Positions 49,659 to 59,576 of a stretch of DNA of 64,000 nt are shown here, piece by piece. The DNA is taken from positions 6,942,198 through 7,006,197 of the forward strand of contig NZ_AP023355.1 of assembly GCF_016865425.1 (NCBI RefSeq), read 5' to 3'. The notes beneath the pieces are model-generated. The model was not told the origin of the DNA, made no database searches, and saw only the letters and a list, made by a program, of their open reading frames with translations. Numbering within the stretch: the stretch's first letter is position 1; every line of letters begins with the position of its first letter. A program made the position numbers and the translations under genes. Source of the DNA: Actinocatenispora thailandica (GTDB taxonomy: Bacteria; Actinomycetota; Actinomycetes; Mycobacteriales; Micromonosporaceae).

Positions 49659-51131
49659 TCAGCGACAGCCGCAACCGGCCAGGCTGGCGGCGACCCCGTC
49701 GATCGCCGCCGTCGCCGCCGCGCCGTCGTCGTTGCCGTTCGCGAGCACGGCGAACGCGAGCAGCCGCTGATCCGCGTCGACCACCAGCCCGGCGAGCCCC
49801 TGGACCCCGGCCAGCGTGCCGGTCTTCGCCCGCAGCACGCCCGCGGCCCGGTGCGCGGAGCCGCGCCGGTACCGGTCGGCCAGGGCCCCGGAGTAGCCGG
49901 CGACCGGGAGACCGGTGTACACACTGGACAGTTCGGGCCGCGAACCGCCGGCGGCGAGCCGCAGTACCGCGGTGAGCAGCGCCGGGTCGAGCCGGTCGGC
50001 CCGTGACAGCCCGCTCGCGTCGGCCATCCGCAGGTCGCCGACCGGTAGGTCGAGATCGCGCAGTACGGCGTGGATCGCGGTCGCCGCGCCGGCGAAGCTG
50101 GCCGGTTCGTGCCGGGCCAGGGCCACCTGCCGGCCGAGCGCCTCGGCGATCACGTTGTCGCTCGTCCGCAGCATCCGTTCGACCAGCGAGGCGAGCGGCG
50201 CCGACCGGACCGTGCCGAGCGGCCGGGCGCCACGGGCCGCCCGCCCGCGCCGCACCGCGCTCGCCGGCAACCCCAGCAACTGGGCGAACTTGATGCCGGC
50301 GTCGAGGTCCGGCGCCGTCGACCGGTTGCGGTCGTAGCGCGGTGCGGTACGACCGCCGTCCACCATCAGCGCGGTGATCGGCGCCACGTCACCGTTCACC
50401 CGCACGTCGCCGTCCCAGCCGGGCGCCCGATCCGGCCCGGTGAACAGCGTCGCGTCCACCAGCACCCGGCGCGGTGCGTGCCCGAGCCGCCGGCGTACCT
50501 GCCTGGCCAGGTCGGTGAGCCGGGCCGCCCCGCGGTAGCTGCCGCCGACCGACACCGACAGGGTGGGATCCCCGCCGCCGACGAGCACCACGTCGCCGGG
50601 CCGCTCGCCGGCCACCGCGGTGGTCCGGAACCGCCGGTCGGCGCCGAGCACGGTCAGCGCCGCCGTCGCCGTGGTCAGCTTCGCCGTCGCCGCGGGCACC
50701 CGGGCGCCGGTACCGGCGGAGTAGAGCGTGCCACCGGTCGCCGCGTCCACGACCGAGACGCCGACCTCGGTGCCGAGCCGAGGGTCGCCGAGCCGGGCAC
50801 CCAGCGTGCGGGCGAGGCCGGCGGCGCTGGGCGGTCGGCCGCCGGCCAGCGCGGGCAGCACCGGGCCGGGGTCGGTACCCGACCAGGACGGTGCCGGTGG
50901 CCGGTCCGCAACCGGCGCGGCCGGGCGGGGCGGCCGGTTCCCGCCGAGCACGAGCAGGGCAACGGCGAGCACCACGGTGAGCCCGATCCCGCTGCGGACC
51001 GGGATGCGCCGCCGCTGCCGGTGCCGCCCGGTCACGACGCCGGCCGACCGCCCGGGGCCCGAGCGGCGCCCGTCGCCCGCCGCACCCCGCCGCCCGGTCG
51101 GGGCTGGCCCGATCGGTGCTGGCCCGGTCAC
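49659..51131 (-). CDS. DacB-like PBP (peptidase S13) lacking the catalytic serine
   Basis: The 490-residue protein has a Pro/Gly/Arg-rich N-terminus, a helix near residues 45-62 and a peptidase S13 (PBP4/DacB-like) domain. In the family SxxK motif the serine is replaced by Ala148 (VPAATAKLTTATAAL; codon GCG at 50688-50690). SDN (LRTSDNVIAEALG) and KTG (RAKTGTLAGVQG) are intact. Without the serine, D-Ala-D-Ala cleavage should be lost. GTG 51131 overlaps the upstream PBP stop (GTGA). Confidence 0.85.
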   Translation of the reverse strand: MTGPAPIGPAPTGRRGAAGDGRRSGPGRSAGVVTGRHRQRRRIPVRSGIGLTVVLAVALLVLGGNRPPRPAAPVADRPPAPSWSGTDPGPVLPALAGGRPPSAAGLARTLGARLGDPRLGTEVGVSVVDAATGGTLYSAGTGARVPAATAKLTTATAALTVLGADRRFRTTAVAGERPGDVVLVGGGDPTLSVSVGGSYRGAARLTDLARQVRRRLGHAPRRVLVDATLFTGPDRAPGWDGDVRVNGDVAPITALMVDGGRTAPRYDRNRSTAPDLDAGIKFAQLLGLPASAVRRGRAARGARPLGTVRSAPLASLVERMLRTSDNVIAEALGRQVALARHEPASFAGAATAIHAVLRDLDLPVGDLRMADASGLSRADRLDPALLTAVLRLAAGGSRPELSSVYTGLPVAGYSGALADRYRRGSAHRAAGVLRAKTGTLAGVQGLAGLVVDADQRLLAFAVLANGNDDGAAATAAIDGVAASLAGCGCR

Positions 51132-53092
51132 GGCGCGGCCGGCGAGGCGGCGGGCAGCGGGCCGCCGGGCACCGACCCGGGTCGGATGCGTGCGAGGAGC
51201 CGACCCGGCAGGTCCGCCGCCGGCGGTCGACCGCCGGCGGCGCCGACCCGTACCACGGTCGCCTGCGCGTCGTCCGCGCTCGCCGCCCAGGCCGAGCGAA
51301 CGCGCTTGCCCTGGCGCTGGACGCTGGTGCGGTACAGGGTCGGTTCCGGCGCCCGCAGCACCCGGGTCGGGCCGGCCGCGGCAGGCACCTTCGGGAACTG
51401 CCCGGCGACGTCCCGGGTCTGCGCCGCGGCCGACGCGCCGAACGCCCGCCGGGTGGCCGGTGCCGCCCGGTACAGCAGGGTGCCGGACCAGGACCGGGCC
51501 GCGGCGACGACGTGCCGGGCGACCGCCACACCGTCGTTGCCGAGAGTGGCGTACCCGCTGGCCAGGTCGGCCGGGCTGACCGGGTAGCCGCCGAGCGCGA
51601 TGGCCGGCCGGGTCAGCGCCGGCTGCGGATCGTCCGGACCGTCGACGAGACTCGGCCGCCCGTCGTAGCGCGCGGCGATGCCGGCGGCGCGCACGTCGTG
51701 CACGATCCGGACCGGGTCGGTCGCCCGCGCCACCCGGTAGAGCACCGTGTCGTACGAGCCGGCAACCGCCTCGTCGATGGTGCACCGGGGGCACTGCGCG
51801 TTGCCCGGGTTGTACAGCGGGACGCCGTTGCGGTCCGGGAACTGCTGCGGGGATCGACCGTCCCACAACCGATCCCGGTCCAGGCCGTGCTGGAACGCGC
51901 TGGCCAGCGCCAGCGGGGTGAACACCGCGCCGGGCACCGCCGCGGCGCCGGCGTGGTCGAAGTACCCGAAGCCCTTCGTGTTGCCGTGGTAGGCGCGGAC
52001 GCCGCCGGTCTGCGGATCGACCGACACCACCGCGACCGCCAGGTTCGCGGACCGCGCCTCCCGCCGCAGCGCCGCCTCGGTGCGCTGCTGGGCGGCCCGG
52101 TCGATCGTGGTCACCACCCGCAGCCCGCCGGTACGCAGCTGCTGGGCGGTGATGCCGTGCCGTTCCAGCTCCCATTCGACCTGCTGCGCGATCAGCCCGG
52201 ACGGGCCGGACAGGTCGGCCTCGGTCGGTGGCCTCGTCGCCGGGAACCGCAGCCGGGCCGCCTGACCCGCGCCGAGCCAGTGCTGCGACACCAGCCCGGC
52301 CCGCACGTACCGCCAGCGGGCGCGGGCACCGGCCGGATCGACCGCCGGGTCGAAGTTCGTCGGATCCTTGATGACGGTGGCGAGGACCATCCCCTGCGCG
52401 GTGTCCAGCCGCTCCACCGGCACCCCGAAGTACGCCCGGGCCGCCGCGTCGATCCCGTACGCGCCGCGGCCGAAGTAGATCGTGTTCAGGTACCGGCCGA
52501 GGATCTGGTCCTTGCCGTACCGGCGCTCCAGCTTCTCCGCCAGCACGATCTCGCGCATCTTGCGGGACACCGTCCGGTCCAGCGTCAGGTACGCGTTGCG
52601 CACGTACTGCTGGGTGATCGTCGACGCGCCCTCCGCACCGCCGTCGGTCAGGTCGGCCCACACCGCCCGGGTGATGCCCCGCCCGGACACCGCGCCGTGC
52701 GTGTAGAAGGACCGGTCCTCGGCGGCCAGTACGGCCCGGCGCACCGTCAGCGGCACCCGGCTCAGCGGTACCGCGGTGCGGTCGACGACCCCGATCCGGG
52801 CGAGGACGGTGTGGCCGTCCGAGTAGTAGAGCACCGACTGTTGCGGCTGCACCGGGTCGGCCGGCAGCGGCAGGCCGACCGCCCAGCCGACCAGCGCCAG
52901 GCTCGCGGTCAGCAGCAGCGCACCGAACCCGGCCACCGCCCGGCGGACCCGGCGGACCCACCGCCGGACCGGTCGCCGGCGCCGACCGCGCCGTCCGGTG
53001 GCCGTGCGCAGGATCCGCCGTACCAGGAGCGCCGCCGGGGAGTTCACCACGTCACGGACACGGGGGCGGAACCGCGCGGCGTTGCCCGGCAT
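51128..53092 (-). CDS. Class A PBP with intact GT51 but degenerate transpeptidase
   Basis: The 654-residue protein has a helix at 52-75 and a GT51 domain with Glu125 in AAEDRSFYTHGAVSGRGI, GASTITQQYVRNAYL and YGKDQILGRYLNTIYFGRGA. The transpeptidase-like domain has lost its motifs: SxxK is PGAVFTPL (Ala389, Thr392), SxN is SYD (446-448) and no KTG is seen. It may still polymerise glycan strands. It is coupled to the DacB-like gene, which lacks its own serine. Confidence 0.88.
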   Translation of the reverse strand: MPGNAARFRPRVRDVVNSPAALLVRRILRTATGRRGRRRRPVRRWVRRVRRAVAGFGALLLTASLALVGWAVGLPLPADPVQPQQSVLYYSDGHTVLARIGVVDRTAVPLSRVPLTVRRAVLAAEDRSFYTHGAVSGRGITRAVWADLTDGGAEGASTITQQYVRNAYLTLDRTVSRKMREIVLAEKLERRYGKDQILGRYLNTIYFGRGAYGIDAAARAYFGVPVERLDTAQGMVLATVIKDPTNFDPAVDPAGARARWRYVRAGLVSQHWLGAGQAARLRFPATRPPTEADLSGPSGLIAQQVEWELERHGITAQQLRTGGLRVVTTIDRAAQQRTEAALRREARSANLAVAVVSVDPQTGGVRAYHGNTKGFGYFDHAGAAAVPGAVFTPLALASAFQHGLDRDRLWDGRSPQQFPDRNGVPLYNPGNAQCPRCTIDEAVAGSYDTVLYRVARATDPVRIVHDVRAAGIAARYDGRPSLVDGPDDPQPALTRPAIALGGYPVSPADLASGYATLGNDGVAVARHVVAAARSWSGTLLYRAAPATRRAFGASAAAQTRDVAGQFPKVPAAAGPTRVLRAPEPTLYRTSVQRQGKRVRSAWAASADDAQATVVRVGAAGGRPPAADLPGRLLARIRPGSVPGGPLPAASPAAP

Positions 53093-56573: not shown

Positions 56574-59500
56574 ATGACGAGCCCCCCGAACCGCCCGCGT
56601 GGCTCGGCCCGGGTCCCCGGGCCGGATCCCGACGGTCCCGGTGGTGTCCGCGATCCGGGCCAGTCCGGGCGACACGGCGTCCCCGGTAGCCCTGGCGCGG
56701 CCAGCGACTACGGCACGGCACGGCACGGTGCAGCCGGGCCCGACCAGCCGTACCGGCGAGGTCTGGGTGGCGGGTCGGCCGACCGACCCGCCACCGGCAC
56801 CTACGGCGGTTCGGCGCGCCCGGCCACCGGGAGCGGTTCCGCCCCGCGCGAGCCCGGCACCGGGTACGGCCGCCCGCCCCGGCACGGCGCGAGCGACGAA
56901 CCGCCGAGCGGCCGGCATTCGGTCGGCGGCGGCCGGCACTCGTCCGAGCCGCCGACCGGCTCCGCCTCCGTCGGCGGCGCCACCCGGCGCAGCGCCTTCG
57001 GCAGCGGCGCCACCGGCTCGGCCTCCGTGGGCAGCGCCTCGGTCGGGTCCGCCTCGGTCGGGTCGGCCTCGGTCGGTAGCGCCTCGGTCGGGTCGGCATC
57101 GGTCGGTAGTGCCTCGGTCGGGTCCGCCTCGGTCGGGTCCGCCTCCGTCGGTGGTGCCGGCATGGGCCGTGCCTCGGTCCGGCCCGCCGGACCGGACGGG
57201 CCGTCGGACTTCTTCGGTGACGACGGCAGCCCGCTGAGCCGCGCCGAGGAGCGCCGCCGTTCGCGCGAGACGCCGCGGGCGGCGAAGAAGCGGCGCCGCC
57301 GACGCCGCATCATCGCCGGTGTCGCGGTGCTGCTGCTGCTCACCGGCATCGGCACCATCGGCGGCGCGTTCTACTTCACCAACGTCACGCTGCCCGGCCA
57401 GCTTCCCACCCCGCAGGCGTCGACGTTCTACTACGACGACGGCAAGACGCCGATGGCGCGGCTCGGCGCGAGCGACTCCAACCGGCACGTCGTCGACATC
57501 GACAAGGTGCCGGAGCGGGTGCAGTACGCGGTGGTGGCGGCGGAGGACAAGACGTTCTTCACCAACTCCGGCGTCGACTTCAAGGGCACCGTCCGGGCGT
57601 TGTGGAACAACGTGACCGGCGGCGACACCCAGGGCGCGTCGACGATCACCCAGCAGTACGCGAAGCTGTCCGAGGACGCGAACACCGCAGCGGACCGCAC
57701 GTACACCCAGAAGCTCAAAGAAGCGGTCGTGGCGATAAAGCTCGACCAGAAGTACTCCAAGAAGCAGATCCTCGGCTTCTACCTCAATGCGGTCTACTTC
57801 GGCCGCGGTGCGTACGGGATCCAGGCGGCGGCGCAGGTCTACTACCACAAGGACATCAGCAAGTTGACCACCGAGGAGGCGGCCGTGCTGGCCTCGGTGA
57901 TCAAGGACCCGTCGCAGGACGACCCGGCGGTCGACAAGAAGCTCGCCCAGGCTCGCTGGGAGTACACGCTCCGGCAGATGACCAAGCTGGGCAAGTACCA
58001 CAAGACCGTCTCGCTGGCGAACTATCCGATGCCGGACAAGCCGAAGGCCAACACCGGGGCGAGCTTCGGGCTGGACAAGCCGACCGGCTTCGTGGTCACC
58101 CAGGTGATCAACGAACTCGCCCGCAACCGCACACTCTCCGACGCCTCCACCTACCACAAGGCGCGGGAGGAGACGAAGCAGAAGCTGGAGACCGGCGGGT
58201 ACAAGATCGTCACCACGATCAACAAGAAGGCCGAGGACGACGCGATCTCCTCCGCCCACGAGGTGATGAACGGCGACCAGGAAGACAAGGACGCCCAGAA
58301 GAAGAACCACCACCGCCTCGCCACCTCGCTGGTCTCGGTCCAGCCCGGCACCGGCAAGGTGATCGCCTATTACGGCGGCGACGACGGCACCGGGTTCGAC
58401 ATGGCGGCCAACCCACACCAGCCCGGCTCCTCGTTCAAGGTGTACGCGCTGGCCCTGGCGATCAACAACGGCATCTCGGTCAAGTCGCTGTGGAACGGTG
58501 ACGAGTCGGAGAAGTTCGACGACCGCGGTGGCGACGGCAAGGTGCACAACTCCGACGGCGAGCACTGCAACGACGGCGGGATGGACGCCCAGGGCCACGA
58601 GCTGTGCACCCTGTGGAAGGCGACGGCGATGTCGCTGAACACGGTGTTCTATGCCTTGACCCAGAAGGAAGGCAAGGACAAGGTGCTCCAGCTGGCGCAC
58701 GACGCCGGCATCAACTCCATCACCTCGGACGGCTCCAACGGTAAGCCGGCGAAGACGTTCGACCTCAACACCACCAGCGCGCAGGACGTCGTCGCGCAGG
58801 GCGGCCTGGGCAACGAGATCGGCTTCGGCCAGTACCCGGTGACCGCGCTGGACCACGCGAACGGCTACGCCACCCTGGCGAACAAGGGCGTCTACACCAC
58901 CGAGCACTTCGTCACGAAGCTGACCGACTCGCACGGCGCCACGGTGGACCTGCCCAAGGTCAAGCACCGCCGGGTGATCAGCGCCTCGGCCGCTGCCGAC
59001 CTCGACTGGGTGCTGCAGAAGGTCGCCACCAACGAGAAGCAGAAGATCGACCCGCCCCGGCAGCAGGCCAACAAGACCGGCACCTGGGAGTGGCCGAACA
59101 AGGACAACGTCAACGCCAACTCGCACGCCTGGATGTGCGGGTACGTGCCGCAGCTCGCCACCGTGGTCTGGATCGGGCGAAAGAAGGGTGACGGCCCGAT
59201 CTACAACATGTGGGGCGCCCCGATGTACGGCTCGGAGTACCCGTCGTTCATCTGGAAGGCGTTCATGACCAAGGTGTTGCCGGACCTGAACATGCCGGCG
59301 GAGAACTTCCCGACACCGGTGTTCGGCGGCAGCGAGACCGCCGGTCAGGTGGCGTCCTCGTCGCCGTCACCGTCGCCGACGCCCAAGAACCACAATCCGC
59401 ATCCGACCGGGCACCCGACGGGTACCGCCACGCCGCCAGGCTGGCCGCCGGGTACCGGCACACCGACCGGTGGCGCGTCCTCACCGACCTGCAACAAGTG

Positions 59501-59576
59501 GGATCCGACCTGCCAGACCGGCGGACCGGGCAACGGGAACAACCCGGCCGGGAACAACGTCGCCCCCGCCGGGTAG
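56574..59576 (+). CDS. Bifunctional class A penicillin-binding protein (PonA1-like)
   Basis: The 1000-residue protein polymerises and crosslinks peptidoglycan. A 245-residue cytoplasmic N-terminus has nine SASVG units (57018-57152). A helix at 246-268 leads to GT51 with Glu324 in AAEDKTFFTN and GASTITQQYAKLSED. The transpeptidase is intact: SxxK Ser619 in PGSSFKVYAL, SLN at 687 and KTG at 834. The tail is Pro/Thr/Gly-rich with two cysteines. It has the same neighbours as Rv0050 (ponA1). Confidence 0.93.
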   Translation: MTSPPNRPRGSARVPGPDPDGPGGVRDPGQSGRHGVPGSPGAASDYGTARHGAAGPDQPYRRGLGGGSADRPATGTYGGSARPATGSGSAPREPGTGYGRPPRHGASDEPPSGRHSVGGGRHSSEPPTGSASVGGATRRSAFGSGATGSASVGSASVGSASVGSASVGSASVGSASVGSASVGSASVGSASVGGAGMGRASVRPAGPDGPSDFFGDDGSPLSRAEERRRSRETPRAAKKRRRRRRIIAGVAVLLLLTGIGTIGGAFYFTNVTLPGQLPTPQASTFYYDDGKTPMARLGASDSNRHVVDIDKVPERVQYAVVAAEDKTFFTNSGVDFKGTVRALWNNVTGGDTQGASTITQQYAKLSEDANTAADRTYTQKLKEAVVAIKLDQKYSKKQILGFYLNAVYFGRGAYGIQAAAQVYYHKDISKLTTEEAAVLASVIKDPSQDDPAVDKKLAQARWEYTLRQMTKLGKYHKTVSLANYPMPDKPKANTGASFGLDKPTGFVVTQVINELARNRTLSDASTYHKAREETKQKLETGGYKIVTTINKKAEDDAISSAHEVMNGDQEDKDAQKKNHHRLATSLVSVQPGTGKVIAYYGGDDGTGFDMAANPHQPGSSFKVYALALAINNGISVKSLWNGDESEKFDDRGGDGKVHNSDGEHCNDGGMDAQGHELCTLWKATAMSLNTVFYALTQKEGKDKVLQLAHDAGINSITSDGSNGKPAKTFDLNTTSAQDVVAQGGLGNEIGFGQYPVTALDHANGYATLANKGVYTTEHFVTKLTDSHGATVDLPKVKHRRVISASAAADLDWVLQKVATNEKQKIDPPRQQANKTGTWEWPNKDNVNANSHAWMCGYVPQLATVVWIGRKKGDGPIYNMWGAPMYGSEYPSFIWKAFMTKVLPDLNMPAENFPTPVFGGSETAGQVASSSPSPSPTPKNHNPHPTGHPTGTATPPGWPPGTGTPTGGASSPTCNKWDPTCQTGGPGNGNNPAGNNVAPAG
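57018..57152 (+). repeat. 15-bp tandem repeat in ponA N-terminus
   Basis: Nine 15-bp units (TCGGCCTCGGTCGGG-like) encode SASVG nine times. Third-codon positions vary but the peptide is constant, so selection on the protein is likely. Confidence 0.95.

What the first reader, a model, noticed from the sequence alone, without database searches (positions are those of the whole stretch)
49659..53092. Two overlapping PBP genes that have both lost their serine-enzyme catalytic residues
The class A PBP keeps its GT51 glycan polymerase but SxxK reads A389-V-F-T392, SxN reads SYD and there is no KTG. The DacB-like protein next to it keeps SDN and KTG but its SxxK serine is Ala148 (PAATAK). The genes share a GTGA overlap. 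Loss in both halves of one operon suggests a non-catalytic pair, perhaps a glycan polymerase with a penicillin-blind, substrate-binding partner. The intact PonA-like PBP at 56574 could supply crosslinking.
Basis: partly seen in the sequence, partly recalled or inferred. Interest (0 to 1): 0.7.

Follow-up and report, generated by a model that had tools for sequence, protein, structure and literature searches.

The report
Wall-building enzyme with dead crosslinking domain
A soil-type actinomycete carries a cell-wall glycan polymerase whose crosslinking half has lost its active site, a loss that recurs in one lineage of such enzymes, while its partner peptidase lost its active site only in this species among those compared.

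Summary
The sequence observation holds. The PBP (51128-53092, -) keeps GT51, but SxxK reads AVFT, SxN reads SYD and KTG is gone. The overlapping DacB (49659-51131, -) keeps SDN and KTG but has Ala148.

The two losses differ. The sister species G003 has an equally dead PBP (AAFT/SYG, about 80% identical) but an intact DacB (PASTAK). DacB Ala148 is one TCG-to-GCG difference; 31 of 31 other DacBs examined keep Ser. So this is not a conserved non-catalytic pair.

The PBP belongs to an accessory Micromonosporaceae clade (23 members, support 100/99) in which 11 of 23 lack the nucleophile, with 6-9 losses on bootstrap trees if serine is never regained. 0 of 101 other class A PBPs lack it. GT glutamates persist in 22 of 23. 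Ten of 23 carry a C-terminal NodB deacetylase (5) or beta-lactamase-fold (5) domain, found in 0 of 95 controls.

Best reading: a class A PBP reduced to a glycan polymerase, in a lineage repeatedly joined to a second wall enzyme; here a DacB by operon, inactivated in this species. Polymerase activity and coupling are inferred; nothing was assayed.

The parts
51128..53092 (-). Class A PBP gene, 654 aa: GT51 polymerase plus pseudo-transpeptidase domain
   Evidence: clade tree
52301..52807 (-). GT51 (Transgly) domain, residues 96-264; E125 and E181 kept
   Evidence: PF00912, 191.2 bits
51413..52033 (-). Degenerate transpeptidase domain, residues 354-560 by Pfam
   Evidence: PF00905, 25.1 bits, cut-off 22.1; 42 of 95 TP sites invariant in ten intact members changed, against 7 of 86 GT sites
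51917..51928 (-). SxxK position, reads A389-V-F-T392
   Evidence: aligned to E. coli PBP1B GSLAK
49659..51131 (-). DacB/PBP4-like (S13) gene, 490 aa; conserved start probably at codon 33
50688..50690 (-). DacB nucleophile codon: GCG (Ala148); TCG (Ser) in the sister species G003
51128..51131 (-). GTGA overlap between the PBP stop and a DacB GTG; also present in G003
56574..59576 (+). PonA-like class A PBP with intact SxxK, SxN and KTG (comparison, not part of the cassette)

Best explanation
The window holds a two-gene accessory cassette. Gene 1 is a class A PBP by descent that has lost D,D-transpeptidase chemistry and acts as a membrane-anchored GT51 glycan polymerase, its TP domain kept as a non-catalytic scaffold. 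Gene 2 is a second DacB (PBP4-type DD-carboxypeptidase/endopeptidase), found among the genomes searched only in this species and its sister, in an overlapping operon; it is intact in the sister and carries Ala for Ser at the nucleophile here. Mechanism proposed: the polymerase extends strands from lipid II and leaves crosslinking to other enzymes of the cell (intact class A or B PBPs, or L,D-transpeptidases, for which a DD-carboxypeptidase makes the tetrapeptide donor). Shown here: residue losses, their conservation and recurrence, purifying selection, synteny. Inferred: membrane anchoring, GT activity, loss of penicillin binding, coupling, and who crosslinks. In the wider clade the same polymerase is fused to a NodB deacetylase or a beta-lactamase-fold domain in 10 of 23 members, so joining to a second wall enzyme looks like a theme of the lineage.
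For: Sister species: AAFT/SYG/RTS with GT intact and DacB PASTAK. Clade of 23 at 100/99 on the GT plus linker region; Ser lost in 11 of 23, KTG Lys lost in two more (G035, G074). Irreversible Ser losses on 1000 bootstrap trees: 6 (56), 7 (574), 8 (369), 9 (1); with free reversal 4-7 changes. Controls 79 of 79 and 22 of 22 keep SxxK. GT glutamates kept in 22 of 23. Sites invariant in ten intact members: window changed 7 of 86 GT and 42 of 95 TP. dN/dS window/G003: GT 0.34, TP 0.41, dacB 0.31; G036/G144, also TP-dead, GT 0.14 and TP 0.40. C-terminal enzyme domains in 10 of 23 against 0 of 95 controls. Precedent (abstract and passages): PBP1b S510A polymerises glycan, and its GT activity plus a DD-carboxypeptidase plus an L,D-transpeptidase, with raised (p)ppGpp, supports E. 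coli growth under beta-lactam (PMC5089857).
Against: No biochemical data and no structural model (predictor switched off). The cassette is dispensable: the close relative G001 lacks it. dN/dS of the PBP (0.43) and dacB (0.31) exceeds that of all eight flanking genes measured (0.02-0.26), so constraint is relaxed. TP dN/dS in TP-dead pairs (0.25-0.41) overlaps that in the other pairs (0.19-0.33), and by conserved sites G105, G138 and G035 (6-8 of 95 changed) lie within the range of intact members (0-9 of 95-104), so several copies look freshly inactivated. G026 lost most of TP and one GT glutamate. The clade's backbone is weakly supported: 8 of 30 inner branches of the tree are open. No neighbour is shared across the clade. 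The KTG alignment in the window is uncertain because the region is degenerate. DacB Ala148 is a single base and cannot be checked against reads.
Confidence: 0.72

Rival explanations
1. Plain decay: the accessory PBP and DacB are drifting to pseudogenes, and TP loss is only the first visible step.
For: Patchy: 20 of 121 family genomes hold a clade PBP at E <= 1e-95 (after two outsiders are dropped); missing from G001 although its sister G003 and the more distant G000 have it; elevated dN/dS; G026, G129 and G080 strongly altered.
Against: Frames are open; in 11 of 11 Ser-lost members fewer conserved GT sites than TP sites changed (0-9 of 86 against 6-53 of 95); GT dN/dS is 0.14-0.34 in four TP-dead pairs; the loss is shared across speciation in window/G003 and in G036/G144.
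Confidence: 0.15
2. One reading: a selected non-catalytic pair, with a penicillin-blind DacB that binds stem peptides beside the polymerase.
For: At 88 sites conserved in 30 other DacBs the window has only two private changes (S148A, T416A), so the fold should persist. E. coli PBP4 active-site mutants still go to midcell, S62G more diffusely, and PBP4 crosslinks to PBP1A in cells (PMC9166362, passages).
Against: Sister DacB is intact; 31 of 31 other DacBs keep Ser; no DacB in the 20 other clade stretches searched. In E. coli, PBP4(S62A) did not change the crosslinkage made by PBP1A in vitro (PMC9166362, figure legend).
Confidence: 0.1
3. DacB Ala148 is a sequencing error or strain polymorphism; the cassette is a polymerase plus an active DD-carboxypeptidase. 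This concerns the DacB codon only and can hold together with the best explanation for the PBP.
For: One base differs from the sister codon; SDN and KTG are kept.
Against: One-contig assembly, open frame; a second private change at a conserved site (T416A) and none private to G003, though 2 against 0 is weak.
Confidence: 0.12

Closest known systems
Bifunctional class A PBPs (PBP1A/PBP1B, PF00912 + PF00905)
   Same: Descent, domain order, GT51 glutamates, recognisable TP region
   Different: SxxK, SxN and KTG all lost; in 10 of 23 clade members also a C-terminal NodB or beta-lactamase-fold domain
E. coli PBP1b S510A (laboratory mutant)
   Same: Polymerase with Ser-to-Ala in SxxK; polymerises glycan and supports L,D-transpeptidase growth (PMC5089857, passages)
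   Different: Made in the laboratory; here natural, recurrent and followed by further TP decay
Monofunctional glycosyltransferases (TIGR02070; MtgA/SgtB, names recalled)
   Same: GT51 activity expected without TP activity
   Different: Retains a TP-derived domain; TIGR02070 score 107.1 is below the 182.65 cut-off
PBP4/DacB, peptidase family S13 (E. coli PBP4, 2ex2; the carboxypeptidase 1w79, Actinomadura R39 by recall)
   Same: PF02113 264.8 bits, TIGR00666 199.6 over 107.8; SDN and KTG kept
   Different: Nucleophile Ser replaced by Ala in the window copy; encoded beside a class A PBP
B. subtilis PBP 2B S309A (structural role of an inactive PBP)
   Same: A PBP that works without its serine while another PBP supplies catalysis (PMC5656894, passages)
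   Different: A division PBP without GT51 (class B by recall), laboratory mutant

Membership tests
Bifunctional class A PBP | GT51 domain with both catalytic Glu | tested here: met
Bifunctional class A PBP | Transpeptidase domain with SxxK, SxN, KTG | tested here: not met
   AVFT / SYD / RTS
Bifunctional class A PBP | Covalent penicillin binding | not testable with these tools
   predicted absent from loss of Ser
Monofunctional glycosyltransferase (MtgA type) | GT51 without TP-derived domain, over TIGR02070 cut-off | tested here: not met
   PF00905 25.1 bits still present; TIGR02070 107.1 under 182.65
Micromonosporaceae accessory class A PBP clade with TP loss (defined here) | Monophyly with TP-intact and TP-dead relatives | tested here: met
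   100/99 support, 23 rows of a 33-row tree
PBP4/DacB (S13) | PF02113 and TIGR00666 over cut-off | tested here: met
PBP4/DacB (S13) | SxxK serine | tested here: not met
   Ala148, codon GCG; Ser in 31 of 31 others
PBP4/DacB (S13) | SDN and KTG | tested here: met
Pseudoenzyme under selection (PBP TP domain) | dN/dS under 1 across TP-dead pairs | tested here: met
   TP 0.41, 0.40, 0.25, 0.39 in four pairs, NG86, no standard errors computed; in G013/G074 the second keeps Ser and lacks the KTG lysine

The most novel reading that the evidence does not exclude
One lineage of class A PBPs in Micromonosporaceae has become a modular strand-making platform: the polymerase is kept, the D,D-transpeptidase is switched off again and again at its nucleophile, and the polymerase is joined by fusion or operon to a wall-editing enzyme (NodB deacetylase, beta-lactamase-fold SxxK domain, DacB), so that it lays down glycan that is deacetylated or peptide-trimmed rather than D,D-crosslinked, for L,D-crosslinked wall or for spore and sporangium envelopes.
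Probability: 0.33. Interest if true: 0.8.

Novelty: new variant of a known kind. Interest (0 to 1): 0.6.

Why it matters
Class A PBPs are taught as bifunctional. A natural lineage that keeps the polymerase and repeatedly discards the penicillin-sensitive half, with intact and dead relatives side by side, gives a ready comparison for an open question: what the TP domain contributes to glycan synthesis apart from crosslinking. The NodB and beta-lactamase-fold fusions on class A PBPs are unexpected and open to direct test. It also warns that counts of PBPs by Pfam hit can overstate crosslinking capacity and penicillin targets in actinomycetes: the window PBP still passes the PF00905 cut-off.

Tried and rejected
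Rejected: joint loss as a conserved trait of the operon (sister DacB intact). Rejected as less likely: recent horizontal arrival of the cassette. dS of pbp (0.29) is close to that of the flanking genes (0.12-0.28) and dS of dacB (0.39) is somewhat above them; and G001, which lacks the cassette, groups with G003 (194 informative sites against 79 and 67, G002 as outgroup), so loss in G001 from a shared ancestor fits better. Rejected: a conserved gene neighbourhood across the clade; clusters found in three or more genomes were the PBP itself, frames overlapping it, or a few scattered distant ORFs. The promoter and terminator scan gave no promoter-like site and one terminator-like site, which lies outside the two genes.

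Literature: searches listed no paper whose title or shown abstract describes natural TP-dead class A PBPs or NodB fusions of them; the library lacks most subscription journals. A near precedent: tables in PMC6273383 mark several Streptomyces class A and C beta-lactamase homologues as lacking SXXK or other active-site residues (passages). Passages only were read of PMC6804068, PMC6273383, PMC9166362, PMC5656894, PMC5089857 (64, with part of its abstract), PMC13251363 and PMC5814848.

Rows dropped or added before counts: G067 and G061 (one search hits, all three motifs intact) fall outside the clade with PonA (98/92); G026 was added although below the 1e-95 cut, and A. flavus. Of the 22 proteins used as controls, eight (PonA and seven others) were in the tree; the rest were left out of the clade by their lower similarity only. 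Six of the 22 were not in the domain scan, which cover 79 plus 16.
Full report
Observation. The PBP is a GT51 protein (PF00912, 191.2 bits) with a barely recognisable transpeptidase domain (25.1 bits; PonA of the same genome scores 85.1). Its motif positions read A389-V-F-T392, SYD and R588-T-S. HMMER aligns A389 to the serine of E. coli PBP1B GSLAK. The DacB is an S13 protein (PF02113 264.8 bits, TIGR00666 199.6 bits) whose PAATAK aligns with PASTQK of E. coli PBP4. The stop/start overlap is present and also occurs in the sister species, although the sister's start aligns to window codon V33.

The two losses are not alike. Of four genomes held for the genus, two (G000, the window's, and G003) have the pair. 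In G003 the PBP is equally dead (AAFT/SYG/RTS) but the DacB has PASTAK. The DacB difference is TCG against GCG. 31 of 31 other DacB sequences examined keep the serine: the sister, four paralogs in the genus and 26 family loci; the further matches, whose DNA was not fetched, were not examined. At 88 DacB sites conserved in at least 95% of 30 others the window has two private changes (S148A, T416A), G003 none, and both share five. So the DacB loss is species-level among those compared, recent, or even an error; the PBP loss is older.

The PBP belongs to a clade with recurrent transpeptidase loss. Searching 121 family genomes gave 23 places in 22 genomes at E <= 1e-95. I dropped G067 and G061, which group with PonA, and added G026 and Actinoplanes flavus: 23 members, 100/99 support on the GT plus linker region (residues 70-350). 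A. flavus, of Micromonosporaceae, nests among them. Ser is lost in 11 of 23 (Ala in ten, Gly in one); two more keep Ser but lose the KTG lysine (G035, G074); ten keep Ser, SxN and K(T/S/A)G. If serine is never regained, 1000 bootstrap trees need 6 to 9 losses (6 in 56, 7 in 574, 8 in 369, 9 in one; ML tree 7); with free reversal 4 to 7 changes. The backbone of the clade is poorly resolved (8 of 30 inner branches of the tree open), which these counts take in. Controls: 79 of 79 class A PBPs from the genome-contig scan keep SxxK and SxN, and 22 of 22 proteins outside the clade do too. Genus searches at the same cut: in g66, 3 of 7 genomes hold a member and all three are Ser-less; in g34, 2 of 7 and both Ser-less.

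Selection. The GT catalytic glutamates are kept in 22 of 23; G026 lost one and most of its TP domain, so that copy looks degenerate. Of sites invariant in the ten intact members, the window changed 7 of 86 in GT and 42 of 95 in TP; the other twelve TP-dead members changed 0-9 of 86 and 6-53 of 95; leave-one-out values for the intact ten are 0-5 (of 86-91) and 0-9 (of 95-104). G105, G138 and G035, with 6-8 TP changes, are inside the intact range. dN/dS (NG86): window/G003 GT 0.34 and TP 0.41; G036/G144 0.14 and 0.40; G105/G138 0.32 and 0.39; G013/G074 0.26 and 0.25; five further pairs, two of which share A. flavus and one of which includes G035, GT 0.09-0.29 and TP 0.19-0.33. Constraint is somewhat relaxed but present. 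That Ala is the replacement in ten of eleven suggests a structural demand on the site; this is inference, and the ten are not independent.

Locus history. In G001 and G002 the ogt gene lies directly beside the gene for a small protein (called NfeD-like by me; no Pfam hit), with no cassette. G001 groups with G003 rather than lying outside both (194 informative sites against 79 and 67). dS of pbp is 0.29 and of dacB 0.39; eight flanking genes range from 0.12 to 0.28. The simplest history is presence in the common ancestor and loss in G001. The cassette is therefore dispensable.

Fusions. Five members end in a NodB polysaccharide deacetylase domain (G105, G138, G035, G084, G125b) and five in a beta-lactamase-fold domain, PF13354 (G142, G125a, G134, G031, A. 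flavus). The NodB domains keep TFDD, HSxxHD and the later motifs; the beta-lactamase-fold domains keep SVVK/SVIK, SDN and KNG (motif meanings recalled). Thirteen have neither, among them the window and G003. Of 95 control class A PBPs scanned the same way (79 plus 16 of the 22), none has either domain. TP serine is lost in two of five NodB fusions and none of five beta-lactamase-fold fusions, so fusion and TP loss do not go together in any simple way. A second wall enzyme joined to this polymerase is thus a theme of part of the lineage; that the DacB of the window is the operon form of it is my inference.

Mechanism. The proposal is a glycan polymerase with a non-catalytic TP scaffold that leaves crosslinking to others. 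The genome has five other GT51 proteins with intact TP motifs, three transpeptidase proteins without GT51 and four YkuD proteins. Precedents, passages read: PBP1b S510A polymerises glycan, and its GT activity with a DD-carboxypeptidase, an L,D-transpeptidase and raised (p)ppGpp supports E. coli growth under beta-lactam (PMC5089857); PBP4 S62A neither binds Bocillin nor has carboxypeptidase activity, PBP4 crosslinks to PBP1A in cells, and PBP4(S62A) did not change PBP1A crosslinkage in vitro (PMC9166362); PBP 2B S309A supports division if PBP 3 is present (PMC5656894). None of this was measured for the window's proteins.

Verdict. The paired-loss interpretation fails on the sister DacB. It is a new variant of class A PBP rather than a new kind of system.

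Noticed in passing
L158:7912-10731, L159:6569-9505, L152:7240-10029, L054:438-3329, L162:7158-9878: Class A PBPs with a C-terminal NodB polysaccharide deacetylase domain, three of them with a dead transpeptidase (two Ser-less, one without the KTG lysine).
   Followed up: partly
L149:6713-9478, L150:8271-11087, L151:8075-10879, L155:2806-5649, L064:5872-8733: Class A PBPs with intact transpeptidase motifs and a C-terminal beta-lactamase-fold (PF13354) domain carrying SxxK and SDN.
   Followed up: partly
window 57014-57188: PonA has an N-terminal array of 15- and 45-base units coding SASVG-like repeats.
   Followed up: no
L147:10087-11490: The intact clade PBP of G097 is followed by an EPSP-synthase-family gene that reads like MurA (PF00275, 249.6 bits; MurA is my reading).
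   Followed up: no
L167:7815-9323: The G026 copy lost most of its transpeptidase domain and one GT51 glutamate: probably a decaying gene.
   Followed up: partly
L150 and L162 (genome G125): One genome carries two clade members, one with a beta-lactamase-fold domain and one with a NodB domain.
   Followed up: no
L145:7517-7691: Empty site in G001 between ogt and the NfeD-like gene, where the window and G003 hold the cassette.
   Followed up: yes
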